In this document: positions 9,184 to 22,963 of the stretch, piece after piece
How the letters are laid out: each line of letters begins with the position of its first letter
Position numbering within the stretch: position 1 is the stretch's first letter
Source of the DNA: Roseofilum capinflatum BLCC-M114
GTDB lineage: Bacteria; Cyanobacteriota; Cyanobacteriia; Cyanobacteriales; Desertifilaceae
DNA length: 64,000 nt
Reading direction: 5' to 3'
Assembly (NCBI RefSeq): GCF_030068505.1
Contig: NZ_JAQOSO010000055.1
Span: 1 to 64,000 of the forward strand
Translations under genes and position numbers: made by a program
Notes under the pieces: model-generated
What the model saw: only the letters and a program-made list of their open reading frames with translations
The model's database searches: none
Told to the model about the DNA's origin: nothing

Positions 9184-10488
9184 CTAAAAATATCCAATTC
9201 CATAGCCCATTTCTGCAAAACCAGAAGTGGTAAACATACTAAAGTTTATGTCTTGATCTTCGCATTGCTGGGCAGCAGCAGCTACAAATTCTTGATGTTG
9301 AGTCAAGGGGTGGGGGAGATTCTGACCGAGTTGACAAAACTGCTCAAATTCATTGAGTAATTGTGGATGGTCAAATTTTTTTAACTCAGTCTGGTAGTTA
9401 GATTGGGCAAATTTCCAAAATTCGCTCTCAAATCTCGATCCCATGGAATAGTGCCAACCGATAAATAGGGCTGTTCGCATGAGATGATTGAAGAGAATTT
9501 GATTAAAGCGTTGTAAATTGTCAGGCTTAAGTTTGGGTTTGGTGTGCTTGAAAACTAACTGACGTAGAGGCCAAACGGATAGCGATCGCATAAAAACCAA
9601 GATCCAGACGATCGCTGTGGCTTCGAGAGGTTCCAAAAATGACGCAGTATTGCCAATGCGGAACACTGCTCCATCAAAAAAGGAACGGCAGGTAAAGTTA
9701 GGGAATGTGAGCTGGCGTTCTTTAGCAACGGACGTTACACCTTCACTGTCTAGAAAAATATCAAAGTCCTGGGTTACGTCCTCAATACTGGTAATCAAAT
9801 GGTTATAGATATAACCATAGGAGGTGCGGTGAGTGAGGGGAATCATAAAAATCCAACCATGGGGACGGGCGATCGCTCTGGTGGCTGAGTTGTATTCAAA
9901 CGGATGACCATTGATTTTCAGGTCAACAATACCGCCAGGGATAGCTGGACATTGGCGCAGGAGAGCCGCATTGGTGGGAATAATGTTCACCTTGATATGC
10001 TCATCCCCTAGGGTTTTCGGGAGTCCCCGTGCATCGATCGCAAAGTCTACGTCTAGGTGAGTGCGATCGCTAAACTCAATCTTAGCCACCATCCCATCAC
10101 TCTCCAGTGCAATGACTTTCTTATGAATAGAAGTTGCCGACACATACCGATCCAGCAACTTCACAATTTCCTCAGAAGAAAGATGATAAGCATACTCCTC
10201 TCGCAGGGGGCAAAAGTGATGAAAGAACGATTGATGTTGAGTTCCCCAATTCTCAAACTTAATGCCATACTTACGAGTCATAAAACATTGCTCGACTAAC
10301 TCTAAGTCGCTTAAACCCGTCAGTTCTTGTAACCAATCCCGAAAAATAGCCGTTGTTCCCTCTCCCACACCAATAATGGGGATATTTGGATCGTAAATAT
10401 GGTACAAATCGAAAGTCGGGAAATATTTGCTCAGGTGTGCAGCCGCCACAAAACCGGCTGTTCCACCCCCAATTACAGCAATTTTCAT
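9184..10488 (-). CDS. Flavin-dependent tryptophan-halogenase-like enzyme
   Basis: This 434-aa FAD enzyme of the PrnA-type halogenase family would oxidise halide to hypohalous acid and halogenate an aromatic substrate, here probably Trp in the precursor peptides. The GxGxxG FAD motif is at residues 7-12. Lys73 in KYGIKFENW matches the catalytic lysine region, and a PLEATA segment (Glu290) matches the PLESTG active-site glutamate region. The hallmark WxWxIP motif appears as WIFMIP (212-217), with Phe for the second Trp. It is the last gene of a four-gene operon; no flavin reductase gene is adjacent. Halide and position cannot be predicted. Confidence 0.82.
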   Translation of the reverse strand: MKIAVIGGGTAGFVAAAHLSKYFPTFDLYHIYDPNIPIIGVGEGTTAIFRDWLQELTGLSDLELVEQCFMTRKYGIKFENWGTQHQSFFHHFCPLREEYAYHLSSEEIVKLLDRYVSATSIHKKVIALESDGMVAKIEFSDRTHLDVDFAIDARGLPKTLGDEHIKVNIIPTNAALLRQCPAIPGGIVDLKINGHPFEYNSATRAIARPHGWIFMIPLTHRTSYGYIYNHLITSIEDVTQDFDIFLDSEGVTSVAKERQLTFPNFTCRSFFDGAVFRIGNTASFLEPLEATAIVWILVFMRSLSVWPLRQLVFKHTKPKLKPDNLQRFNQILFNHLMRTALFIGWHYSMGSRFESEFWKFAQSNYQTELKKFDHPQLLNEFEQFCQLGQNLPHPLTQHQEFVAAAAQQCEDQDINFSMFTTSGFAEMGYGIGYF

Positions 10489-10533
10489 AACGGCTTACTC
10501 TGGCTTGATTCTAAAAGTTTAGTGGAAAAGAAG

Positions 10534-11166
10534 CTATCGTTTATAATCGTGAGTAACGGATAAACATTCCTGTAAATTAACCACACCATGATACATGCCT
10601 CCTGGTGTAAAAACAATATCTCCAGGCTCTGCTATGCCAGTCAGGACGCGATCTTTATCTGGAAAAAACCACCAGTATTTTGAACCATAAATACTCACAT
10701 TCCAAGCATGACACTCTTCAACATCGATATGAGCTTCTGTCATTGAAGAAGGCGGGCCCAGAAAAATCCATCGATATTTGTCAGGTTGATATGAAGCGTC
10801 TGCAAAAAAAGGTGGGATTGAATAATCTTCCTCTAAAAAACGATTTTCTTCTATGGGAATATCACGCAGATAATTGGTCTTTCTATTGGAAAAAGACAAT
10901 TGAGGGAAATTAGCTAAATATTTCTTGTAGTTATTAATGCAAAATTTCTCAGTGATGAAATTGCGATCCCACTTCTCAAACGCTTTCCAATTCAACGGAA
11001 AGTTTTTGATCATCACCGGAATATTTTGTTTTTCATACGTTTCAATAAATTCATCCGTTGAAATAGCTTCAATCACCTGCACTGGCTCATAACTCTTTTG
11101 GCGATTGTCTTGCTTTTTTCTAATCAGGTTTTTTAAGACTGATACACTATCTAGGGTTTCTGACAT
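10534..11166 (-). CDS. JmjC/cupin_8-type Fe(II)/2-oxoglutarate hydroxylase
   Basis: This 210-aa protein has the JmjC (cupin_8) fold. The iron triad is complete: His146-x-Asp148 in AHIDVEECHAWN and His193 in GGMYHGVVNL. Lys164 in SKYWWFFP is a candidate 2-oxoglutarate ligand. Bacterial relatives hydroxylate amino-acid side chains in proteins or peptides. It starts 6 bp after the UPF0489 gene and ends 45 bp before the halogenase, so it belongs to the tailoring operon. I infer that it hydroxylates a residue of the precursor cores (Arg, Trp or an aliphatic residue). Confidence 0.83.
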   Translation of the reverse strand: MSETLDSVSVLKNLIRKKQDNRQKSYEPVQVIEAISTDEFIETYEKQNIPVMIKNFPLNWKAFEKWDRNFITEKFCINNYKKYLANFPQLSFSNRKTNYLRDIPIEENRFLEEDYSIPPFFADASYQPDKYRWIFLGPPSSMTEAHIDVEECHAWNVSIYGSKYWWFFPDKDRVLTGIAEPGDIVFTPGGMYHGVVNLQECLSVTHDYKR

Positions 11167-11172
11167 GGTGAG

Positions 11173-12132
11173 TTAAACTAAAACGACATTGGATTGATTT
11201 AAACCTTGCTCTGCCAAAACTTGATCGATACTCATAGCGTTAATCTCATAAGTTTCACCCAGTTTTTCCAGTAATGTCTTTTCAATGAATTGGCATTGAT
11301 CGTCAGGAGTATAGCCACTAATTCGCGATCGACAGATACAAACCATCTGAATCTCAACGTTGTGGGATACCAAAAAGTTAACTAACTGTTCAATCCGATT
11401 AACAATCGCATCCTCTGAGACTTTCAATTGTCTATCAAAAGAGTCATCTGTGAACGGAAAATCATGAAATTGAATATAGTATCGATTCTCTTCAACTCGA
11501 ATGGAAAAACGGCTGCCATAAAAAATTCTCAAGAAATGATATCGATCTTGGATTAAGGATTCATACTGCTCTTTCGTAATTTCAAGAATGCCTTCACCTT
11601 CAAAGACTTGCTCATTACAAGAAAAGTAATCTAAGTCGATATCTAGAACTACAGTTTGATCGTCTGGGAATTCATCATCCACCGTCAAATGTTGAATTTT
11701 GGCCAGCTTGCAAGAGGGATCGCCTAATAACTTAATCACATTTTTTAGACCCGTTTCTTCAGGCTTCAGGGGTTTGGCGACTAAGATATCATGCTCTGGA
11801 TTGGGAAAGTACAGTTTATAAGTACGCCTTTTTGTCGATAATTTAGGCGAGGGATGTCTGAGCCAATATTCTTCCTTAAAGACTCCCTGATAGAGGGCGG
11901 GTACAATAAAATTGGCAATGTTTAGCTCATTGTAAGTAAACTGATAAACCTCGGATAGATCGCGGGTATTCAGTTGATCTAGCGGCTTTTTGAAGCTCGG
12001 ATAATTAAAGTCTGAATGCTCATCGACATGAAACAAAATATTATCAGATTCTGGGATTAATTTTTTATGGATTGCATAATGCCAGATCAAAAAAGCTTCG
12101 TTGTGTTCTTCAAAAGTAAAAACGGGAATCAT
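11173..12132 (-). CDS. UPF0489 family protein, putative peptide arginase
   Basis: This 319-aa protein has the ureohydrolase-like metal motifs of UPF0489: HVDEHSD at residues 35-41 and LDIDLDYF with acids at 164, 166 and 168. Members of this family act as peptide arginases that convert Arg in RiPP precursors to ornithine (OspR of landornamide biosynthesis). Both motifs are intact, and the precursor cores encoded nearby are rich in Arg, so Arg-to-Orn conversion is the likely role (inference). It lies 34 bp after the fusion gene and 6 bp before the JmjC gene in one operon. Confidence 0.8.
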   Translation of the reverse strand: MIPVFTFEEHNEAFLIWHYAIHKKLIPESDNILFHVDEHSDFNYPSFKKPLDQLNTRDLSEVYQFTYNELNIANFIVPALYQGVFKEEYWLRHPSPKLSTKRRTYKLYFPNPEHDILVAKPLKPEETGLKNVIKLLGDPSCKLAKIQHLTVDDEFPDDQTVVLDIDLDYFSCNEQVFEGEGILEITKEQYESLIQDRYHFLRIFYGSRFSIRVEENRYYIQFHDFPFTDDSFDRQLKVSEDAIVNRIEQLVNFLVSHNVEIQMVCICRSRISGYTPDDQCQFIEKTLLEKLGETYEINAMSIDQVLAEQGLNQSNVVLV

Positions 12133-12166: not shown

Positions 12167-13537
12167 TTAATTGGCGTTAGGAGGCGGAAATTGGTAAGCG
12201 ACTGTAACTCGCAGTTTATTACATAAACGACTGGGAGCGCAACCCCGATGAGGGATAGTATTATCAAAAATAATTACTCGTCCGGGTTTAGGGAGACAAC
12301 TATAGATCAGATCGGCCTGACTCAAATCACGATGGCTATAAAATTTGGTTTCTCCATCCCAATCTGCTCTCCACATGGGATTGATATAACAAACTGCTGT
12401 TTGTCCTGGATTCTCTAAATTTTCTGAATCCCGATGAATACTATCTCCGAGGGCAAAAACATGACCATTGACGATCGTTCTGGGAGTATCGGGTTTATAG
12501 TCGAGTTGTTCGGTAACAAGTTGTCTGAGTTGATCGATACTGTCTGGAAACTCTTCTGTTGCCCAAAAAGAAGTAAATAGGTCGTCTTCATCTCCGTAGT
12601 TTTTAAACTCCCAACGCAAGCCAGATTGATAGTAGTTATAGATCTCTGTTAATAAGTCGTGGGGGATTAGGTTATCATAGACTCTGATCCGACCAGAGTC
12701 TAGTTTGACTTCAGTGAGTGAGGCTGAGGAAGAACGACCAGAGGAGGAGCCAGATGGACGCTTTGATTCGGATAACTGCATAGAACTGACAATTTTTTTC
12801 TTCTCTTGCTTGTACTCTTCTCTTAATTGGTTATTTTCCCAAATTTCATCTAAGGAGAGAAATTGCAATGGATAAATTTGGCTCAGGCGCTCTACCAGTT
12901 GTTCTTGAATCCATGGCCATTGTTCTTCTCCCCTGAAGCCACTGATTTGAGAGCGACGAATACAAATCAGTTTGGGATCGATACTATTTTGCTTTAAGAA
13001 ATCAACCAGTTCATCTATTCTCTGAAGCTGGTCTTCTGGATGAGCAGGACTGGAATTGATACTGAAGTAATCGGAGACAATATCCAAAACGACACCTTGC
13101 CGATCGGGTTGATCTAAAATGGTCGATTTGGGGTTTAATGTCTGAAATTCTTGGAGTTTATATTTCGGTTTGATCAGCCATTGCAAGAAAGTCTGGGAAT
13201 CGATTTCTTCTTTGTGGAACGTTTTGTAGGTTAAAATCTCTCCACTTTGAGAGGTATAAGTACAAACCCACAGGGATTGAGACGGTACTTCTTGATTGGG
13301 ATAAAGCCAATAGACTTCCTTAAACAAACCCCGATGGATCATGGGTACAAGGAAATGAGCGATGGATATCTCGTGGGGATAAATACCATACAGTGCTGCT
13401 AAATTAGGCTGGTCATTAATATATCGATTGATATGAAGGAGAATATTCCCGTCTTCAGAGATCAATTGTTTGTGTATGGCATAGTGCCATAGGATAGAAG
13501 ACTCTTTCCGGTCTTCAAATATAACGGTATGGATCAT
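12167..13537 (-). CDS. Fusion: degenerate UPF0489 (arginase-like) domain plus 2OG-Fe(II) oxygenase
   Basis: This 456-aa protein is the first gene of the tailoring operon. Residues 1-235 align with the neighbouring UPF0489 protein (LWHYAIHK, ICIRRSQISGF), but the DEHSD metal motif reads NRYIN (37-41) and DIDLDYF reads DIVSDYF (152-158). The arginase site is therefore almost certainly dead. A Ser-rich linker (about 255-275) leads to a prolyl-4-hydroxylase-like domain with complete catalytic residues: His368-x-Asp370, His430 and Arg443. I infer that the N-terminal domain binds the substrate peptide and presents it to the hydroxylase. I do not know this architecture from characterised pathways. 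Confidence 0.8.
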   Translation of the reverse strand: MIHTVIFEDRKESSILWHYAIHKQLISEDGNILLHINRYINDQPNLAALYGIYPHEISIAHFLVPMIHRGLFKEVYWLYPNQEVPSQSLWVCTYTSQSGEILTYKTFHKEEIDSQTFLQWLIKPKYKLQEFQTLNPKSTILDQPDRQGVVLDIVSDYFSINSSPAHPEDQLQRIDELVDFLKQNSIDPKLICIRRSQISGFRGEEQWPWIQEQLVERLSQIYPLQFLSLDEIWENNQLREEYKQEKKKIVSSMQLSESKRPSGSSSGRSSSASLTEVKLDSGRIRVYDNLIPHDLLTEIYNYYQSGLRWEFKNYGDEDDLFTSFWATEEFPDSIDQLRQLVTEQLDYKPDTPRTIVNGHVFALGDSIHRDSENLENPGQTAVCYINPMWRADWDGETKFYSHRDLSQADLIYSCLPKPGRVIIFDNTIPHRGCAPSRLCNKLRVTVAYQFPPPNAN

Positions 13538-13801: not shown

Positions 13802-14077
13802 ATGTCCATTGAATCTTTGTCTAAAAAAATCTCAGAATCCTCAGAATGGTCTCAAAAGTTTGAAGCTTGTGAGACAAACGACCAAGTTATTTTGACTCTT
13901 CTGAAGGGATCGGTAGACTTAGGTGAAGGAAACTTAACTGTTAATGAGTTGGTATCCTTCATTGATAATTTGAGTTCCGCAGACGATCAAGAGCTAGATG
14001 ATGCGGAATTGGAAGCAGCAGCCGGTGGTGGCTGGGCCCGTCGGTCTTGGAGACGTGCCAGTAGAGGAACTTGGTAG
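13802..14077 (+). CDS. RiPP precursor peptide 1 (Nif11-like leader, Trp/Arg core)
   Basis: This 91-aa precursor has an acidic helical leader (residues 1-77) ending DQELDDAELEAAAGGG. That ending resembles Nif11-type leaders and carries a Gly-Gly cleavage site for a C39 peptidase. The core (78-91) is WARRSWRRASRGTW: three Trp, five Arg, and no Cys, Lys or acidic residue. The modifying enzymes encoded divergently (halogenase, peptide arginase family, two hydroxylases) fit Trp and Arg targets. A strong AAGGAG ribosome site precedes it. Cleavage after the second or third Gly cannot be settled from sequence. Confidence 0.88.
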   Translation: MSIESLSKKISESSEWSQKFEACETNDQVILTLLKGSVDLGEGNLTVNELVSFIDNLSSADDQELDDAELEAAAGGGWARRSWRRASRGTW

Positions 14078-14144: not shown

Positions 14145-14417
14145 ATGTCAATTGAATCCCTGTCTAAAAAAATCGCGGAATCTTCGGAATGGTCTCAGAA
14201 ACTGGAAAGTGCTGAGAGTAATGAACAACTCGTTTTAACTCTCCTGAAGGGATCGGTAGACTTAGGTGAAGGAGACTTAACCACTAGCGAGCTGGTGTCC
14301 TTCATTGATAATTTGAGTTCCGCAGACGATCAAGAGCTAGATGATGCGGAATTGGAAGCAGCAGCCGGTGGTGGCTGGGCCCGTCGGGCTTGGAGAGGTG
14401 TCTCTAGAGTTTGGTAG
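14145..14417 (+). CDS. RiPP precursor peptide 2 (Nif11-like leader, Trp/Arg core)
   Basis: This 90-aa paralogue of precursor 1 has a leader of the same length (77 residues) and a 13-residue core, WARRAWRGVSRVW, with three Trp and four Arg. Ninety bases spanning the leader end and core start are identical to precursor 1 (14298-14387 versus 13955-14044), silent positions included, which points to recent duplication or gene conversion. Beyond that the core diverges. It lies 67 bp downstream of precursor 1 with a weaker AAGAAG ribosome site. Confidence 0.88.
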   Translation: MSIESLSKKIAESSEWSQKLESAESNEQLVLTLLKGSVDLGEGDLTTSELVSFIDNLSSADDQELDDAELEAAAGGGWARRAWRGVSRVW

Positions 14418-14582: not shown

Positions 14583-17276
14583 ATGAATCAAAACCTAACT
14601 ACTCAAACCCTGATTCGAGGTAATGAACCGCTTCTGTTGAATGACCCTAATCGAGTTTGGTTAATTGAGTCAGGTTCAATGGTCGTTTTTGCGGTCAATG
14701 TGGTGGATGGAGTGGCTCAAGGAGCGCGTCGTTATTTGTTTAGTGCTACAGCAAATGAAACTCTATTTGGGTTGGGCGATCTAAGCAATGCTCCTTATCA
14801 ACTGCTGGCGATCGCCATAGAAGAAACAGCACTAACATCATGGAGTCTGAACGATTTTCTTGAGCCAGGACAAGGCAATGGCCATCATGCAGACTTTGCA
14901 CAAATGCATGTGGAACAGTGGAGATCTCGCCTCAGCTCCCCTTTTTCCCATACCAATATTCCCTTTACGCCTCCAACGCTTGAAAACCTGGAATCCACTG
15001 CCGTTCTGTCTTCCTATCTCGATCACCTGCATCAAGACTTTCTCCACAGTTTAGACCAACTCGAACAGGAAGAACTAGCGGATAAACTCACCCAATTTCA
15101 AGAGCGCCAACGGCTGAATCAAAACACTCAGCGCAGCAGTATTGGCGATCTCGTCTCTGTCCTCAAACCCAAACAAGCGGAATTTCTGCAAGAAGGAACG
15201 CCTCTGTTGGTGGCTGCGGGGGCAGTGGGACGCTCCATGGGGCTTGAAATTCGCCCTCCTGCACACTCAGAAAATACGGAGCGGACGAAAAACCCCCTCG
15301 ATGCGATCGCCCGCGCTTCCGGTATTCGCATTCGTCGCGTTCTATTGAGCGATCGCTGGTGGGAAAAAGACTGCGGCGCTCTCCTGGCCTATACTCAAGA
15401 GGATAACCATCCCGTTGCCCTGCTACCGGGAAAACGGGGCGGCTACGACCTCTTCGATCCCATTGCCGAAGCCCGCACACCCATCACTCGCGCCCTCGCT
15501 TTCCAACTCGATCCCGTTGCCTACACCTTTTATCGACCGTTCCCAGATAAACATCTGAATTTCCTGGAACTGTTGCGGTTTTCCCTGCGAGGTTTAGGAC
15601 TCGATGTAATTACCATTGTGCTGATGGGCATTCTCGCCTCCTTAGTGGGAATGGTGGTTCCCCAAGCCACCGGTATTCTGATGGATCAAGCCATTCCCGA
15701 TGCCAACCGCAGCCTAGTATGGCAAATTGGACTTGCTCTCTTAGCGGCTAGTTTTGGTAAAGCCATTTTCGAGTTAGCCCAGGGGTTTGCCATTCTGCGA
15801 ACCCAAGCCCTTTTCAACTTTGCCAACCAAGCCGCCCTCTGGGATCGACTGCTGAAGCTGCGGATGTCTTTCTTTCGCCAGTATGCGACTGGGGATTTAA
15901 TGGATCGAGCGACTGCCTTCGATCAGATGCGACAACTGCTGACTGCGAATGTGATGCGATCGCTCTTTACGGGCGTGTTTTCCTTGCTGAACCTGGGCTT
16001 GATGCTATTGTATAGCGTACCCCTCACCCTAGCGGCGGCGGCGATCGCGATCGTCAACGTGATCATCACCCTAATTGTCAGCAACATCACCCGCAAAAAA
16101 ATGCAACCTCTGCAACAAATTCAAGGAGAAATCTTTGGATTAACCGTGCAACTCATTGGCGGCGTTTCCAAACTCAAAATTGCCGGAGCAGAAAAGCGAG
16201 GTTTTGCCTACTGGACAAAAAAATATAGAGAACAACTGATGTTAACCCTGAGTACAGAGGGTGTTGAAGATGCCGTAAACCTCTTTAATACCATCTTACC
16301 CACCGTCAGTTCCATTATTATCTTTGCCGTAGCCGTTCAACTAATTAACACCGCTCAAGCCCAAGGACAAGCCGGACTCTCAACCGGAAAATTTCTCGCC
16401 TTTAATGCCGCCTTTACCATTTTAATTACCGGTCTCACTAGCCTCAGCGATACCCTAATTCAAGTCCTAGAAGTATCCGTTCTCTGGGAGAGAACCCAAC
16501 CCATTTTACAAGCCATTCCAGAAGTCGATTTATCCAAAGCCGATCCTGGAAAACTCAACGGCGATGTAAAACTCGACCGCGTGACCTTCCGTTACCGAGA
16601 AGATGGCCCCCTCATTCTCAATGAAGTCACCGTCGAAGCCAAAGCTGGAGAATTTATTGCCCTGGTTGGCCCTTCCGGAAGTGGTAAATCAACCACCATT
16701 CGTTTACTCCTCGGATTTGAAACTCCAGAAGACGGAACCGTATATTATGACGGTCAAGATTTAAGCGGTTTAGACATCTCCGCCATCCGCCGACAATTGG
16801 GAGTCGTTTTGCAAGGCGGACGCATTAATACTGGTTCCATTTTCGAGAATATTTCCAGTGGCGCATTAGTCACCATGGATGAAGTTTGGGAAGCCGCACA
16901 AATGGCCGGATTTGCCGAAGATGTGGAAAAAATGCCCATGGGAATGCATACCGTAATTTCTGAAGGTGGGGGTAATCTTTCCGGAGGACAAAGACAACGA
17001 TTACTGATTGCCCGTTCCTTAGTTTTAAAGCCCAAAATCCTCATTTTTGATGAAGCCACCAGTGCCTTAGATAACCGCACCCAAGCCATTGTCAGCCAAA
17101 GTTTAGATAGTCTAGATGTGACTCGAATTGTGATTGCTCACCGTCTGAGTACCATTGTCAATGCCAATCGCATCTACGTGATTGAAGCTGGTATTGTTGT
17201 GCAGCAAGGAACCTTTGACGAACTGGCATCACAACCGGGTTTATTTGCCCAATTGATGGCGAGGCAAATGGCGTAG
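14583..17276 (+). CDS. NHLM-type bacteriocin ABC transporter, non-peptidase ATPase/permease
   Basis: This 897-aa protein matches the larger, peptidase-less ABC component of NHLM/NHLP microcin export systems. A long N-terminal region of about 330 residues with no C39 active site precedes a six-helix ABC membrane domain (about 345-610) and an ATPase domain with Walker A GPSGSGKSTT, signature LSGGQRQR and Walker B ILIFDEATSALD. In such systems it works with an HlyD adaptor and a C39 ABC protein, both present downstream. It starts at ATG 14583 after the STRR block. No good Shine-Dalgarno sequence is visible. Confidence 0.87.
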   Translation: MNQNLTTQTLIRGNEPLLLNDPNRVWLIESGSMVVFAVNVVDGVAQGARRYLFSATANETLFGLGDLSNAPYQLLAIAIEETALTSWSLNDFLEPGQGNGHHADFAQMHVEQWRSRLSSPFSHTNIPFTPPTLENLESTAVLSSYLDHLHQDFLHSLDQLEQEELADKLTQFQERQRLNQNTQRSSIGDLVSVLKPKQAEFLQEGTPLLVAAGAVGRSMGLEIRPPAHSENTERTKNPLDAIARASGIRIRRVLLSDRWWEKDCGALLAYTQEDNHPVALLPGKRGGYDLFDPIAEARTPITRALAFQLDPVAYTFYRPFPDKHLNFLELLRFSLRGLGLDVITIVLMGILASLVGMVVPQATGILMDQAIPDANRSLVWQIGLALLAASFGKAIFELAQGFAILRTQALFNFANQAALWDRLLKLRMSFFRQYATGDLMDRATAFDQMRQLLTANVMRSLFTGVFSLLNLGLMLLYSVPLTLAAAAIAIVNVIITLIVSNITRKKMQPLQQIQGEIFGLTVQLIGGVSKLKIAGAEKRGFAYWTKKYREQLMLTLSTEGVEDAVNLFNTILPTVSSIIIFAVAVQLINTAQAQGQAGLSTGKFLAFNAAFTILITGLTSLSDTLIQVLEVSVLWERTQPILQAIPEVDLSKADPGKLNGDVKLDRVTFRYREDGPLILNEVTVEAKAGEFIALVGPSGSGKSTTIRLLLGFETPEDGTVYYDGQDLSGLDISAIRRQLGVVLQGGRINTGSIFENISSGALVTMDEVWEAAQMAGFAEDVEKMPMGMHTVISEGGGNLSGGQRQRLLIARSLVLKPKILIFDEATSALDNRTQAIVSQSLDSLDVTRIVIAHRLSTIVNANRIYVIEAGIVVQQGTFDELASQPGLFAQLMARQMA

Positions 17277-17400: not shown

Positions 17401-17763
17401 GTGTCAGAGATTAAAGATTTTAAAGATTTAATGATTTGGCAAAAAGGAATGGATATTGCAGAAAAATGTTATTATCTTACCCAAAATTTCCCCAGAGAAG
17501 AACGGTATGTTATGGTGGATCAAATTAGAAGAGCTGCTGCATCTATCCCTGCCAATATTGCGGAAGGATATGGAAGACGTTCTAGAGGTGACTATGCAAG
17601 ATTTCTGAATATTGCACAAGGTTCAATTAATGAACTCCAAACCCATCTTATTCTTTCTGAAAGAGTAGATCTATGTACGAACAAAGATATAGAAACAATC
17701 CTGTCATTACTACAAGAAGAAACGCGAATGATTGCAGCACTGATCAAAAAGCTCAATCCCTAA
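17401..17763 (+). CDS. Four-helix-bundle protein (S23/IVP family)
   Basis: This 120-aa protein begins at GTG and carries the family pattern FKDLMIWQKGMDIAEKCYYLT, then RRAAASIPANIAEGYGRRSRGDYARFLNIAQGSINELQTHL. This family was first noted as proteins encoded in 23S rRNA intervening sequences but is now found widely as small independent genes of unknown role. It sits between NHLM export genes and is bracketed by STRR blocks, so it looks like an insertion rather than a pathway member. Confidence 0.85.
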   Translation: MSEIKDFKDLMIWQKGMDIAEKCYYLTQNFPREERYVMVDQIRRAAASIPANIAEGYGRRSRGDYARFLNIAQGSINELQTHLILSERVDLCTNKDIETILSLLQEETRMIAALIKKLNP

Positions 17764-19031: not shown

Positions 19032-19065
19032 ATTGTTAATTGTTAATTGTTAATTGTTAATTGTT
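19032..19065. repeat. STRR heptamers (TTAATTG)
   Basis: Consecutive TTAATTG/TTGTTAA units abut the ATG of the HlyD gene and leave no room for a normal Shine-Dalgarno sequence. A similar AATTAAA block (20692-20730) lies before the C39 transporter gene. Confidence 0.8.
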
Positions 19066-20688
19066 ATGCCTAGTCAAGAAAAAGATTCCAAACCGAGCAT
19101 TTTTCGCCAAGAATCTTTAGACCAACTGTCTTCTCCAGAACGGCTCGATCAGCTCATGCAAGTGGTGAGTCCGAAAGACTGGCTGCCCTTAACGGTGTTG
19201 GGAAGTTTAGTCTTTATTGGATTAGTCTGGAGTGTTTTCGGACGCATCCCCATTACCGTTCAAGGCAAAGGCATTCTCATCGATCCGCGCCGCATTGTCG
19301 ATTTCCAATCTCCTATTTCTGGACAACTGGAATCTTTGCATGTAGAACCGGGCGAATGTGTCGAAAAAAATACGCTTTTAGCGACGATTAATCCCTCGGA
19401 ACTGCGAAATAAACTCGCATTAGCACAAACGAAAAAGGAAGAATTAGAAGACCAATATAACCAAACTGCTTTGGTCTTAAATCAGAAAAATAGCCGAGAG
19501 CTAGAGGCGATCGCCGCTTCTAGAGCCAGTATTCAACAGCGCCTTCGCGATACCCAAGCTGTTACCCCCCTGCTCAAAGAGCGCGGTTTAGACTCCATTG
19601 CCGAGCAGCGAGAGAGCTTGCAGGAACAGTTAGCCAATACGCAAAACCTCAGCCCCATCCTCAAAGATAAAGTGTTAGAGGCGATCGAGGAACAGCGCCA
19701 AAGCGTGCAACAGCGCCTCGATAATGCTAGAGAACTCGCTCCCGTTTTAGAAGAAAGGCTCACCAAGCGCCAAGAATTAGTGGTAGAAGGGGCGATCGAA
19801 GAAGATACCGTCTTAGATGCTCAACAATCCTACATCGGAGCCTTAGAAAATATTTCCGAACTCGAAGCCCAACTGAAAAATCTCGATGTTCAAGAAGCCG
19901 ATGCTAGACGACAATCTGTGGAAAATCTCAGTCAAGTAAGCAATTTACAAGCCCAAATTAAAGCCTTAGAAGTTCAGGAAACGGAAGCGGAAAAGCGCTA
20001 TTTAGATAATCTCAATGAAGTAGGCACACTCACCGCCGATCTAGAAGAATTAGACACCAGAGAAAAGCGCCTAGAGCAAGAAACCCTTGAGGAACTGAAT
20101 ACTAAAAGAAATCAAATTCGGGAAGTCGAGCGGGAGATGATTCAACTTGAACAACAAATTGCTGAAAAGAGTGAAATTCTCAGCCCTAACTCTGGATGTA
20201 TTCTGGAAACAACCGCCACAACCGGGCAAGTGGTTTCCATGGGAACTCGCTTAGGATCGATGAATATGACCGGAGCAGAGGGAAAAATGATCGGCATTAC
20301 TTATTTTGCCCTCAGAGATGGTAAAAAAATTCAACCCGGAATGCCCATTCAAATCACGCCCGATATTGTTAAACAACAGCGTTATGGTGGTATTGTGGGC
20401 ACGATTACCTCGGTTTCTGATTTTGCTGTCACTGAAGCAGGAGCTACCACCATTGTGGGCAATTCCGATGTGGTGAAGGGATTAATTTCTAGTGGTGGCG
20501 TAATCGAAATTCGAGCCGAATTACAAGAAAATGAAAATAACTTTAGTGGTTATCAATGGTCTTCTTCTCAAGGGCCACAATTGGAAGTTAGCCCAGGAAC
20601 AACGGCAACAGCACGAGTGAGGGTAGAGGAGCGATCGCCCATTACCTTCGTCTTACCGATTTTGCGAGAATGGACAGGAGTGTATTAA
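19066..20688 (+). CDS. HlyD-family adaptor of the NHLM bacteriocin export system
   Basis: This 540-aa periplasmic adaptor bridges the inner-membrane ABC exporter and an outer-membrane channel. One N-terminal membrane helix (about residues 45-65) precedes a biotinyl-lipoyl half domain (GKGILIDPRRIVDFQSP). A long coiled coil (about 105-375) contains repeated QQRL/EEQRQS heptads, then the second lipoyl half and a beta-barrel. This is the membrane-fusion member of NHLM systems. I chose ATG 19066; an upstream in-frame TTG lies in repeats. No outer-membrane factor gene is in the window. Confidence 0.88.
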   Translation: MPSQEKDSKPSIFRQESLDQLSSPERLDQLMQVVSPKDWLPLTVLGSLVFIGLVWSVFGRIPITVQGKGILIDPRRIVDFQSPISGQLESLHVEPGECVEKNTLLATINPSELRNKLALAQTKKEELEDQYNQTALVLNQKNSRELEAIAASRASIQQRLRDTQAVTPLLKERGLDSIAEQRESLQEQLANTQNLSPILKDKVLEAIEEQRQSVQQRLDNARELAPVLEERLTKRQELVVEGAIEEDTVLDAQQSYIGALENISELEAQLKNLDVQEADARRQSVENLSQVSNLQAQIKALEVQETEAEKRYLDNLNEVGTLTADLEELDTREKRLEQETLEELNTKRNQIREVEREMIQLEQQIAEKSEILSPNSGCILETTATTGQVVSMGTRLGSMNMTGAEGKMIGITYFALRDGKKIQPGMPIQITPDIVKQQRYGGIVGTITSVSDFAVTEAGATTIVGNSDVVKGLISSGGVIEIRAELQENENNFSGYQWSSSQGPQLEVSPGTTATARVRVEERSPITFVLPILREWTGVY

Positions 20689-20755: not shown

Positions 20756-22963
20756 ATGGCCCAAGCAACTGCGGAAAAAGAAACAAAAGAGAAAGTCTAT
20801 AAGCGGGTAAAAACGCCGACCTTACTGCAAATGGAAGGGGTTGAATGTGGTGCTGCTTCTTTGGGTATTATTTTAAGTTACTATGGCCGGATTGTTCCTT
20901 TGCCCGAACTGCGAATTACTTGCGGAGTGTCTCGTGATGGGAGTAATGCGGCCAATGTGGTGAAAGCCGCTAGAACTTATGGCCTGCAAGCGAAGGGATT
21001 TAAGAAAGATCCCATGAAGCTTAAAGATGTGAAGCCTCCCTTCATTGTGTTTTGGAATTTTAATCACTTCCTGGTGGTGGAAGGGTTTGTCAAGGATCAA
21101 GTGTATTTAAACGATCCAATGGATGGCCCCAGGAAGATTTCGTTTGAAGAATTCGATCGCGCCTATACGGGAATCGTTCTGATCATGGAACCCGGGCCAG
21201 ACTTCAAAAAAGGAGGGCGCAAACCCAGTATGGCTGCTGCCTTGTATAACCGCCTTCAAGGGTCTTTAGGCGCGATTCTATACTGTATTGTAGCGGGTCT
21301 GCTGCTCGTGATTCCTGGGTTAGCCGTCGCCGTTTTCAGTCAGGTCTTTGTGGACAATATTCTGGTAGAAAACCGGATGGAATGGCTGCGGCCGCTGATT
21401 TTGGGGATGATTCTGACGGCGATCGTGCAAGGGATGCTTTCCCTGCTGCAATTTCGGTATCTTAGACATTTGCAGATTAAACTTTCGGTCACCATGTCCG
21501 GTAATTTTCTGTGGCATGTTTTACGACTTCCTCAAAGATTTTACGCACAAAGGTTTGCTGGAGAAATCGGCGATCGCGTCAACCTGAATACCAAAGTCGC
21601 CAATGTTCTCTCTGGTGAGTTAGCCAAAACCGTCATTGATGCGATGGTTGTCGTCTTTTACGCGGCTGTCATGTTCGCCTATGACTGGGTACTCACCCTG
21701 ATTGGCATCTTCTTTTCCGCCGTCAATGTCCTCGTTTTGCAATGGGTAGCCCGGCGACGCAAAGATACCCACAGTCGCTTAACCCAAGATGAAGGTAAAC
21801 TTGCGGGTGTCAGTATTGCCGCCTTACAAAGTATTGAAACCCTCAAATCTGCTGCCTTAGAATCAGACTTTTTCGCCCGTTGGAGTGGCTATTACGCCAA
21901 AACCACCAACGCCCAACAAACATTAGGCGTTCCCGATCAAATATTAGGAATACTTCCTTCCCTCGTCACCTCTTTAACCACCTTATTTCTACTCGTAGTC
22001 GGTGGTTTTCGGGTAATGAGTGGCGAACTCAGTATTGGAATGTTGATTGCCTTTCAAAGCTTAATGACCAGCTTTCAACAACCCGTTAGCACCCTGGTTC
22101 AATTTGGCTCTACCCTACAAGAATTAGAAGGCGATATTAACCGTTTAGATGATGTCCTTGATAATGAAGTCGATGCCCAAGTCGCCCAAGAGACCAAAAA
22201 TCAGAATGCTCTTCAAGTTTATGCCAACACTTCCTATAAACTACAAGGATATTTAGAGTTACGCAACCTTACCTTTGGCTATGCAAAAGTCAATCCCCCA
22301 TTAGTGGCAGACTTAAGCTTAAAACTCCAACCCGGACAGCGTGTTGCCCTAGTCGGAGGCAGTGGTTCGGGCAAATCAACCGTTGCCAAATTAGTGGCTG
22401 GACTCTATGAACCTTGGTCAGGAGAAATTCTGTTAGACGGTATTCCTAGAGAAGATATTCCCAGAGAAGTATTAACCAATTCTCTCTCCATGGTGGAACA
22501 AGATATTTTCTTATTTGGCGGTACAGTCCGAGATAATCTCACCCTTTGGGATAGTACCATTCCCAATTCCCAATTAATTCGTGCCTGTGAAGATGCCCAA
22601 ATTTTAGATGCCGTTTTAGCCATTCCTGGAGGACTGGACGGGAGTTTATTGGAAGGAGCTGGAAATTTAAGTGGAGGACAGCGCCAGCGTTTAGAAATTG
22701 CCCGCGCTTTAGTCAACGATCCTTCACTTTTAGTGATGGATGAAGCCACCAGTGCCTTAGATGCGGAAACAGAGAAAATTATCGACCAAAATTTGCGTCG
22801 TCGAGGTTGCACTTGTTTGATTGTGGCTCACCGTTTGAGTACGATTCGCGATTGTGATGAGATTATTGTTTTAGAACAAGGTAAGGTTGTACAGCGCGGA
22901 ACCCATGAGGAGATGAAACAGGATGAAGATAGCGTTTATGCTCGATTAATTCAATCGGAGTAA
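20756..22963 (+). CDS. NHLM-type C39 peptidase / ABC exporter
   Basis: This 735-aa protein combines a leader peptidase with an exporter. The C39 domain (about residues 18-150) has oxyanion Gln25, catalytic Cys31 in VECGAAS, His104 in FNHFLVV and Asp120 in YLNDPMDG. The ABC membrane domain (about 170-450) and an ATPase (Walker A GGSGSGKST, LSGGQRQR, VMDEATSALD) follow. It would cut the GG-type leaders of the two precursors during export to give the mature Trp/Arg peptides. All catalytic residues are present, so processing in cis with the cluster is credible. Confidence 0.9.
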   Translation: MAQATAEKETKEKVYKRVKTPTLLQMEGVECGAASLGIILSYYGRIVPLPELRITCGVSRDGSNAANVVKAARTYGLQAKGFKKDPMKLKDVKPPFIVFWNFNHFLVVEGFVKDQVYLNDPMDGPRKISFEEFDRAYTGIVLIMEPGPDFKKGGRKPSMAAALYNRLQGSLGAILYCIVAGLLLVIPGLAVAVFSQVFVDNILVENRMEWLRPLILGMILTAIVQGMLSLLQFRYLRHLQIKLSVTMSGNFLWHVLRLPQRFYAQRFAGEIGDRVNLNTKVANVLSGELAKTVIDAMVVVFYAAVMFAYDWVLTLIGIFFSAVNVLVLQWVARRRKDTHSRLTQDEGKLAGVSIAALQSIETLKSAALESDFFARWSGYYAKTTNAQQTLGVPDQILGILPSLVTSLTTLFLLVVGGFRVMSGELSIGMLIAFQSLMTSFQQPVSTLVQFGSTLQELEGDINRLDDVLDNEVDAQVAQETKNQNALQVYANTSYKLQGYLELRNLTFGYAKVNPPLVADLSLKLQPGQRVALVGGSGSGKSTVAKLVAGLYEPWSGEILLDGIPREDIPREVLTNSLSMVEQDIFLFGGTVRDNLTLWDSTIPNSQLIRACEDAQILDAVLAIPGGLDGSLLEGAGNLSGGQRQRLEIARALVNDPSLLVMDEATSALDAETEKIIDQNLRRRGCTCLIVAHRLSTIRDCDEIIVLEQGKVVQRGTHEEMKQDEDSVYARLIQSE

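What the first reader, a model, noticed from the sequence alone, without database searches (positions are those of the whole stretch)
12167..13537. Pseudo-arginase domain fused to a 2OG-Fe(II) oxygenase
Aligned position by position with the adjacent UPF0489 protein, HVDEHSD becomes HINRYIN and DIDLDYF becomes DIVSDYF. At least D37, E38, H39, D41 and the second Asp of the other motif are lost, yet the surrounding fold residues are kept. The C-terminal hydroxylase keeps His368, Asp370, His430 and Arg443. A dead enzyme domain tethered to a live one suggests recruitment as a leader or core-binding module that presents peptide to the hydroxylase.
Basis: partly seen in the sequence, partly recalled or inferred. 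Interest (0 to 1): 0.85.

Follow-up and report, generated by a model that had tools for sequence, protein, structure and literature searches.

The report
Dead peptide-arginase domain on a hydroxylase
In some cyanobacteria, a spare copy of an enzyme that trims arginine side chains in a small peptide lost its metal site and became attached to an oxygen-adding enzyme, probably to help it hold the same peptide.

Summary
The gene at 13537..12167 (minus strand, 456 aa) joins a UPF0489 / peptide-arginase-like domain to a 2OG-Fe(II) oxygenase, in a RiPP cluster with Nif11-type precursors and an intact arginase. The OspR dimerisation insert is nearly gone. The oxygenase residues are kept. Four such fusions were found (three Roseofilum genomes, one other cyanobacterium), each beside an intact arginase. 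All four lose OspR H41 (Y) and D165 (V); the distant copy keeps the other four ligands and the insert, so loss was stepwise. The dead domains form one clade, next to their partner arginases, and the domain is under purifying selection (dN/dS 0.19). This is a maintained pseudoenzyme, probably from one tandem duplication. That it brings the precursor to the oxygenase is the likeliest reading but untested; the missing insert and neutralised motif positions argue against OspR-style leader or arginine binding in Roseofilum.

The parts
12167..13537 (-). fusion gene: pseudo-peptide-arginase domain + 2OG-Fe(II) oxygenase, 456 aa
12830..13537 (-). residues 1-236: peptide-arginase (UPF0489) homology region without a complete dimanganese site
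   Evidence: NCBIfam NF052474 E 1.5e-27; OspR E 3.2e-22; ligands lost
13508..13510 (-). R10, in place of the MnA ligand His (OspR H12)
13415..13435 (-). HINRYIN (35-41), in place of HVDEHSD: three ligands lost (OspR D39, H41, D43)
13064..13087 (-). LDIVSDYF (151-158), in place of LDIDLDYF: bridging Asp (OspR D165) is V154; OspR D167 kept as D156
13025..13060 (-). residues 160-171, where the ~65-residue OspR dimerisation insert is nearly absent
   Evidence: 13 residues align to OspR 170-234 against 63-69 in 11 intact arginases
12722..12829 (-). Ser-rich linker, residues 237-272 (limits set by eye)
   Evidence: sequence; least constrained part
12170..12721 (-). 2OG-Fe(II) oxygenase domain, residues 273-456; H368, D370, H430, R443 present
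   Evidence: Pfam PF13640 29.2 bits over cut-off 27; 4 of 4 fusions keep the residues
11173..12132 (-). intact peptide arginase with all three motifs (EEHNEAF, DEHSD, LDIDLDYFSC)
   Evidence: Pfam UPF0489 58.4 bits, NF052474 E 6.5e-80 but below its cut-off, six of six ligands
10534..11166 (-). JmjC/cupin hydroxylase-like protein, 210 aa
   Evidence: Pfam JmjC E 4.7e-11, Cupin_8 E 2.6e-10
9184..10488 (-). Trp-halogenase-family flavoprotein, 434 aa
   Evidence: Pfam Trp_halogenase E 3.5e-53
13802..14077 (+). Nif11-type precursor 1, candidate core WARRSWRRASRGTW after GGG
   Evidence: TIGR03798 E 0.0011, below cut-off
14145..14417 (+). Nif11-type precursor 2, candidate core WARRAWRGVSRVW after GGG
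   Evidence: TIGR03798 E 0.0067, below cut-off
14583..17276 (+). NHLM bacteriocin export ABC transporter (ABC2 type)
   Evidence: TIGR03797 over cut-off
19054..20688 (+). NHLM HlyD-type secretion protein
   Evidence: TIGR03794 over cut-off
20756..22963 (+). NHLM ABC transporter with peptidase domain (ABC1 type)
   Evidence: TIGR03796 over cut-off

Best explanation
The protein is a RiPP maturase. A Nif11-linked peptide arginase was duplicated in tandem. One copy stayed a working arginine-to-ornithine enzyme. The other was joined to a FlmC-like 2OG-Fe(II) oxygenase, lost its dimanganese site in steps, and was kept as a non-catalytic domain. The working half hydroxylates a residue of the same arginine-rich core; the dead half most likely holds the precursor (its Nif11 leader, or leader plus core backbone) for the hydroxylase. 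Shown from sequence: fusion, ligand loss, shared losses, purifying selection, intact oxygenase residues, pairing with an intact arginase in 4 of 4. Supported by trees: one origin. Inferred: no arginine hydrolysis, precursor binding, hydroxylation of the core. Which residue is hydroxylated is open: hydroxyornithine has a precedent, and each of the five candidate cores has a Trp-Arg step, but that is not significant. My confidence: dead and maintained pseudoenzyme 0.95 (Roseofilum copies); hydroxylase acts on the precursor 0.85; dead domain binds the precursor 0.55.
For: Window copy keeps one of six OspR ligands, 11 of 11 intact arginases keep six. OspR D39N-H41Q-D43N is about 1% active with 1.8% Mn (PMC10028609 passages); the window copy has D39N and D43N plus H41Y, H12R, D165V. 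Four fusions, each directly beside an intact arginase. H41Y and D165V in 4 of 4. Dead domains one clade, 99/97; 87/90, not starred, with motif, loop and insert columns removed; grouped with the partner arginases 100/99 and 100/100 (midpoint root). dN/dS window against R. halophilum: dead domain 0.19 (0.12-0.29), oxygenase 0.11, intact arginase 0.105. Oxygenase HxD...H...R in 4 of 4. Each cluster has a precursor with an Arg-containing core after GG; Nif11 by Pfam in G360, just under cut-off in G386, weak in the window, R. halophilum's by likeness only. Arginase and fusion are the only maturases seen in all four clusters in the stretches viewed.
Against: No structure, binding or activity data. 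The OspR dimer contact is almost exclusively the 170-234 insert, and the dimer cleft is its proposed leader site (PMC10028609); Roseofilum fusions keep 8-13 residues of it, so binding cannot simply copy OspR. The eight motif positions compared fall from charge -6 to 0, against arginine binding there. Only four fusions, three in one genus. The dead domain has longer branches than the intact arginase; its dN/dS is higher, though the intervals overlap. Non-ligand invariant positions also change (16 of 46 in the window copy); the contrast with ligands is marginal or absent (Fisher p 0.034 window, 0.072 R. halophilum, 0.072 G386, 0.595 G360). The single origin of the dead domains is not starred once the motif columns are removed.
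Confidence: 0.55

Rival explanations
1. The dead domain does not bind the precursor itself; it docks onto the neighbouring intact arginase and makes a two-enzyme complex, so that arginine removal and hydroxylation are coupled.
For: Fusion and intact arginase are adjacent in 4 of 4 clusters. The G360 fusion keeps the OspR-type dimerisation insert, 68 residues. The two proteins are close paralogues.
Against: The insert that makes nearly all OspR dimer contacts is nearly gone in 3 of 4 fusions, so the known interface cannot be used there.
Confidence: 0.2
2. The dead domain is only a structural support or solubility domain for the oxygenase, left over from the fusion and kept because removing it would unfold the protein.
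For: Longer branches and higher dN/dS than the intact arginase, intervals overlapping; loss of insert and loop.
Against: dN/dS 0.19 (0.12-0.29) over 233 codons; 23 positions identical in all 15 proteins, one of them the kept ligand D167; a stand-alone FlmC-like oxygenase exists on a Polaromonas plasmid, so the fold does not need such a partner.
Confidence: 0.15
3. The domain still has, or has gained, a chemistry of its own, for example a single-metal site; the G360 copy keeps H12, D39, D43 and D167.
For: G360 keeps four of six ligands and the motif positions compared have charge -3; OspR single D43 changes keep 5-14% activity (PMC10028609).
Against: In the three Roseofilum copies five of six ligands are gone and only D167 is left. 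Alternative ligands elsewhere in the fold could not be looked for, because no structure model was obtained.
Confidence: 0.07

Closest known systems
OspR peptide arginase (landornamide; PDB 8BRP; pfam12640/UPF0489)
   Same: Homology over the N-terminal region in two stretches (E 3.2e-22); same kind of context, a RiPP precursor cluster.
   Different: Five of six Mn ligands lost and the dimerisation insert nearly gone in the window copy; fused to an oxygenase. The OspR-type locus here (L018) has an NHLP-like leader by eye, the window Nif11-like ones.
FlmR/OhkR peptide arginases and the FlmC-family 2OG oxygenase (NCBIfam NF052474, NF052475)
   Same: Both halves match these models best. The names suggest that an arginase and a 2OG enzyme belong to one flm cluster; the layout itself was not seen, and FlmC gave 0 occurrences in PMC12703449.
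   Different: There separate enzymes (inferred from the model names); here one chain with a dead arginase half. Scores are below the curated cut-offs.
Biphenomycin BipC (UPF0489 arginase) + BipG (JmjC ornithine gamma-hydroxylase)
   Same: An arginase followed by an alpha-ketoglutarate hydroxylase on the same peptide (PMC12707348, passages).
   Different: BipC has the metal motifs and is separate; BipG is a JmjC protein, nearer in kind to the window's 11166..10534 gene than to the fusion's oxygenase.
Catalytically dead E1/ThiF-like leader-binding proteins of thiazole/oxazole-modified peptide clusters (recalled, not tested)
   Same: A catalytic fold reused, without catalysis, to bring a precursor to its modifying enzyme.
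   Different: Different fold; leader binding there is, as recalled, by an RRE domain. No RRE search was made here.

Membership tests
[quoted passage not shown]
   Window, R. halophilum and G386 fusions keep 1 of 6; G360 fusion keeps 4 of 6
Peptide arginase (pfam12640/UPF0489) | Pfam UPF0489 score over gathering cut-off 27 | tested here: not met
   Window 14.5, R. halophilum 14.5, G386 17.6 bits; G360 51.5 passes
Peptide arginase (pfam12640/UPF0489) | Homology over the arginase domain | tested here: met
   OspR E 3.2e-22; NF052474 E 1.5e-27
Peptide arginase (pfam12640/UPF0489) | Dimerisation domain (OspR 170-234) | tested here: not met
   13 residues aligned in the window copy, 13 and 8 in the other Roseofilum fusions, 68 in G360
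Peptide arginase (pfam12640/UPF0489) | Hydrolysis of peptidyl arginine, Mn binding | not testable with these tools
   needs protein
2OG-Fe(II) oxygenase (PF13640) | HxD...H iron triad and 2OG-binding Arg | tested here: met
   H368, D370, H430, R443; 4 of 4 fusions; PF13640 29.2 bits, cut-off 27
FlmC-family 2OG oxygenase (NF052475) | Score over curated cut-off 240 | tested here: not met
   70.7 bits; nearest model, so a relative, not a member
Nif11-type RiPP cluster | Nif11-like leader with GG before an unrelated core | tested here: inconclusive
   Window precursors match TIGR03798 below cut-off (E 0.0011, 0.0067); the G360 precursor passes Pfam Nif11 (56.1 bits), the G386 one just misses (22.8 against 23.8); R. 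halophilum's was not scanned
RiPP recognition module (functional kind) | Binds the precursor leader | not testable with these tools

The most novel reading that the evidence does not exclude
A whole peptide-modifying enzyme has been turned, step by step, into a precursor-recognition module: a pseudo-arginase serving as the leader-binding domain of another maturase, a recognition fold unrelated to the usual RRE, with a half-way form (two of six ligands lost, insert kept) still present in a related cyanobacterium.
Probability: 0.4. Interest if true: 0.72.

Novelty: new variant of a known kind. Interest (0 to 1): 0.56.

Why it matters
How peptide arginases bind their large precursors is, in the words of the OspR authors, unclear (PMC10028609). 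A dead arginase domain that evolution keeps on a hydroxylase separates binding from catalysis and makes the question directly testable. If it binds, it would offer a portable recognition domain for Nif11-type precursors. The series intact arginase, G360 (two ligands lost, insert kept), Roseofilum (five lost, insert nearly gone) would be a readable case of an enzyme turning into an adaptor.

Tried and rejected
Chance or assembly artefact: rejected, four genomes carry the same fusion with open frames.

Independent decay in each genome: disfavoured, not excluded. Dead domains form one clade also without motif, loop and insert columns, but unstarred (87/90), and holding the two G360 paralogues together is only marginally rejected (p-AU 0.0425).

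Relatives elsewhere: the one genome-contig scan gave 8 pattern matches and 1 relative, R. halophilum. Viral contigs gave none (71 pattern matches, 0 confirmed). Plasmids gave six records, all matching in the 2OG part only, all Burkholderiales; I opened three of six. The neighbour in the first matched no arginase model; in the other two it is annotated DUF6817. The intact arginase had no match in plasmids. The FlmC model rang in 60 of 388 genomes, but after the four fusions (63.4-73.1 bits) the next best is 31.8 bits. The 'relatives of G360' search gave the matches of the order sample again, without the window's own genome. Three weak oxygenase-only hits (G235, G312, G357; E 4.7e-4 to 9.7e-4) were left out of all counts of fusions.

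Trp-Arg step in 5 of 5 cores as a target signal: by shuffling, 0.04 for all five and 0.08 for three unrelated ones, so only a lead. That cores start after GG is my assumption.

Cupin_8 as a marker for the JmjC gene: it did not report the window's own JmjC gene, so its silence at the G360 cluster says nothing; the JmjC model itself was not searched.

No model and no fold search.

PDB 9blq, a weak hit for the oxygenase (E 0.021; E 0.00068 with the G360 protein): the four papers listed for that code are unrelated by title. Paper searches for an arginase-oxygenase fusion listed none that I recognised by title; I looked into only four papers, and supplements could not be read. A Roseofilum genome paper (PMC9967302, passages) reports RiPP-like clusters but has no occurrence of Nif11 or halogenase.

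Full report
What is there. On the minus strand, 13537..12167 encodes 456 residues without interruption. Directly downstream on the same strand lie an intact peptide arginase (12132..11173), a JmjC/cupin protein (11166..10534) and a Trp-halogenase-family flavoprotein (10488..9184), with gaps of 34, 6 and 45 bases. Divergently, on the plus strand, lie two precursors of 91 and 90 residues (13802..14077, 14145..14417) ending in WARRSWRRASRGTW and WARRAWRGVSRVW after a GGG, then NHLM-type exporter genes between 14583 and 22963, three of them over their NCBIfam cut-offs. This is a RiPP cluster. The nearest named record is Roseofilum halophilum BLCC-M91, with the same four maturase genes in the same order, the exporter on the other side, and one precursor found instead of two.

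The two halves. Residues 2-166 match the NCBIfam peptide-arginase model (E 1.5e-27) and residues 275-450 the FlmC-family 2OG model (E 1.5e-19), both far below the curated cut-offs (whose numbers are one lower because I gave it the gene without its first codon). By phmmer the best PDB match is OspR (8brp, E 3.2e-22). In Pfam, UPF0489 is below its cut-off (14.5 against 27) and 2OG-FeII_Oxy_3 just above (29.2 against 27).

The metal site. The OspR paper (PMC10028609; part 1 of 6 and passages seen) names H12 and D43 for MnA, H41 and D167 for MnB, and D39 and D165 for both. In an alignment of 4 fusions and 11 intact arginases, 11 of 11 intact proteins have all six. The window and R. halophilum fusions have R at H12, N at D39, Y at H41, N at D43 and V at D165, and keep D167. 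The G386 fusion (a third Roseofilum genome) has M, N, Y, K and V, and keeps D167. The G360 fusion, from another family of the order, keeps H12, D39, D43 and D167 and has Y at H41 and V at D165. So two losses are common to 4 of 4; the three Roseofilum copies lose three more. OspR with D39N-H41Q-D43N had about 1% activity and 1.8% of the manganese of wild type; the window protein has the same two Asn changes and more. The residue next to the first His (OspR E11, thought to steady the guanidine group) is Asp in 4 of 4 fusions and Glu in 11 of 11 intact enzymes.

What else was lost. The OspR dimer contact is almost exclusively residues 170-234, and the cleft between subunits is the proposed leader site. 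Residues aligned to that insert: 13, 13 and 8 in the three Roseofilum fusions, 68 in G360, 63-69 in the intact arginases. The loop after DxHxD is also shortened, by 13 columns in Roseofilum and 10 in G360. The eight motif positions compared (OspR 11, 12, 39, 40, 41, 43, 165, 167) go from net charge -6 in 11 of 11 intact enzymes to -3 in G360 and 0 in the three Roseofilum fusions. Of 46 other positions invariant in the intact enzymes, outside the insert, the fusions keep 30, 29, 29 and 37 (window, R. halophilum, G386, G360); the excess of ligand loss over general loss is marginal or absent (Fisher p 0.034, 0.072, 0.072, 0.595). It is therefore the shared identity of the losses, not their number alone, that argues for a real state.

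Origin. The four dead domains form one clade (99/97). With motif, loop and insert columns removed they still do (87/90, not starred), and the best tree pairing the two G360 paralogues is 13.95 log-likelihood units worse, p-AU 0.0425. With their four partner arginases they form a group supported 100/99 and 100/100 (root at the midpoint). The simplest account is one tandem duplication in a Nif11-linked arginase, fusion of one copy to an oxygenase, loss of H41 and D165, and later loss of the rest and of the insert in Roseofilum.

Constraint. Window against R. halophilum (Nei-Gojobori, 500 bootstraps), dN/dS is 0.19 (0.12-0.29) for the dead domain, 0.29 (0.10-0.87) for the linker, 0.11 (0.05-0.20) for the oxygenase, 0.105 (0.07-0.16) for the intact arginase, 0.16 for the JmjC gene and 0.10 for the flavoprotein. 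Comparisons with G386 and G360 are saturated or nearly so at synonymous sites and say little. The dead domain is thus selected, perhaps less tightly than its neighbours; the intervals overlap.

Distribution. In the genus 3 of 6 genomes have it, the window's included. In a phylum sample 6 of 386 genomes matched the window protein, three of them only weakly in the oxygenase part. In G360's family 3 of 20 genomes matched, one with the fusion. Each fusion has an intact arginase directly beside it (4 of 4). The Trp-halogenase family had no match in the whole G386 genome and matched the other three. A JmjC/cupin gene sits in the three Roseofilum clusters; none was seen in the 19 kb taken around the G360 fusion, by eye and by Pfam on seven of its ORFs. 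Fusion and arginase are therefore the constant pair in what I viewed.

Oxygenase. H368, D370, H430 and R443 are present and aligned in 4 of 4 fusions. The other three oxygenase domains are 92, 69 and 68% identical to the window's. The dead domains are 81% identical between window and R. halophilum and 40-42% in the five other pairs, so they diverge faster.

Precursors. Nif11-type leaders go with the fusions: Pfam Nif11 at 56.1 bits for G360 and 22.8 against a cut-off of 23.8 for G386; the window's are weak matches to the Nif11-like model; R. halophilum's resembles the window's. Of seven arginase loci without a fusion, a precursor was found by my GG pattern in three (L018, L040, L042), and their leaders look NHLP-like by eye. 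Each of the five candidate cores has Arg and a Trp-Arg step; by shuffling the latter is not significant.

Mechanism. The biphenomycin pathway sets a precedent for arginase plus alpha-ketoglutarate hydroxylase on one peptide: BipC makes ornithine and the JmjC protein BipG hydroxylates it (PMC12707348, passages). In the window the JmjC gene would be the nearer counterpart of BipG, which leaves the fusion's oxygenase a different site or residue in Roseofilum; in G360, with no JmjC gene seen nearby, it could be the ornithine hydroxylase. What the dead domain does is inference. Recruitment of the precursor is most likely because the domain descends from an enzyme whose substrate is such a precursor, is selected, and sits on an enzyme that should act on the same precursor. 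It cannot be OspR-style cleft binding in Roseofilum, because the insert is nearly gone, and arginine binding in the old pocket is unlikely there, because the charges are gone. A complex with the intact arginase is the main rival.

Limits. Four fusions, three in one genus, is a small set. Nothing here shows binding or activity. PMC12703449 was read in parts 1-4 of 5; its supplement, with the flm gene table, could not be read. The literature searches listed no title that I recognised as reporting such a fusion.

Noticed in passing
9184-10488 (-): Trp-halogenase-family flavoprotein with GWIFMIP where halogenases typically have WxWxIP (motif recalled); weak match to the flavin monooxygenase QhpG (25 bits, far below cut-off). 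It may be a peptidyl-Trp halogenase or monooxygenase acting on the Trp-containing cores; a similar protein, by eye, lies beside the arginase in L039 and L040.
   Followed up: partly
10534-11166 (-): JmjC/cupin protein directly after the intact arginase, an HID and a distal His present by eye; same domain kind as the BipG ornithine gamma-hydroxylase, so hydroxyornithine is a plausible product.
   Followed up: partly
L016:3880-7185, 10386-10640: The G360 cluster also holds a LanM-type lanthionine synthetase (DUF4135 + LANC_like) and a Nif11 precursor with the very short candidate core ACWRWSG.
   Followed up: no
L016:17020-18108: DUF6445 protein (PF20043, E 5.8e-57) downstream of the flavoprotein in the G360 cluster; function unknown.
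   Followed up: no
L050:3713-4869, L051:3713-4860: On Burkholderiales plasmids a stand-alone 2OG oxygenase gene overlaps a DUF6817 gene by four bases, in two of three records opened: a possible unrelated two-gene unit.
   Followed up: no
17401-17763 (+): A 23S rRNA intervening-sequence-type protein (PF05635, E 3.6e-38) sits between the ABC2 transporter and the cyclic-nucleotide-type regulator; no ORF is listed in the matching gap of R. halophilum (L015 4366-4503).
   Followed up: no
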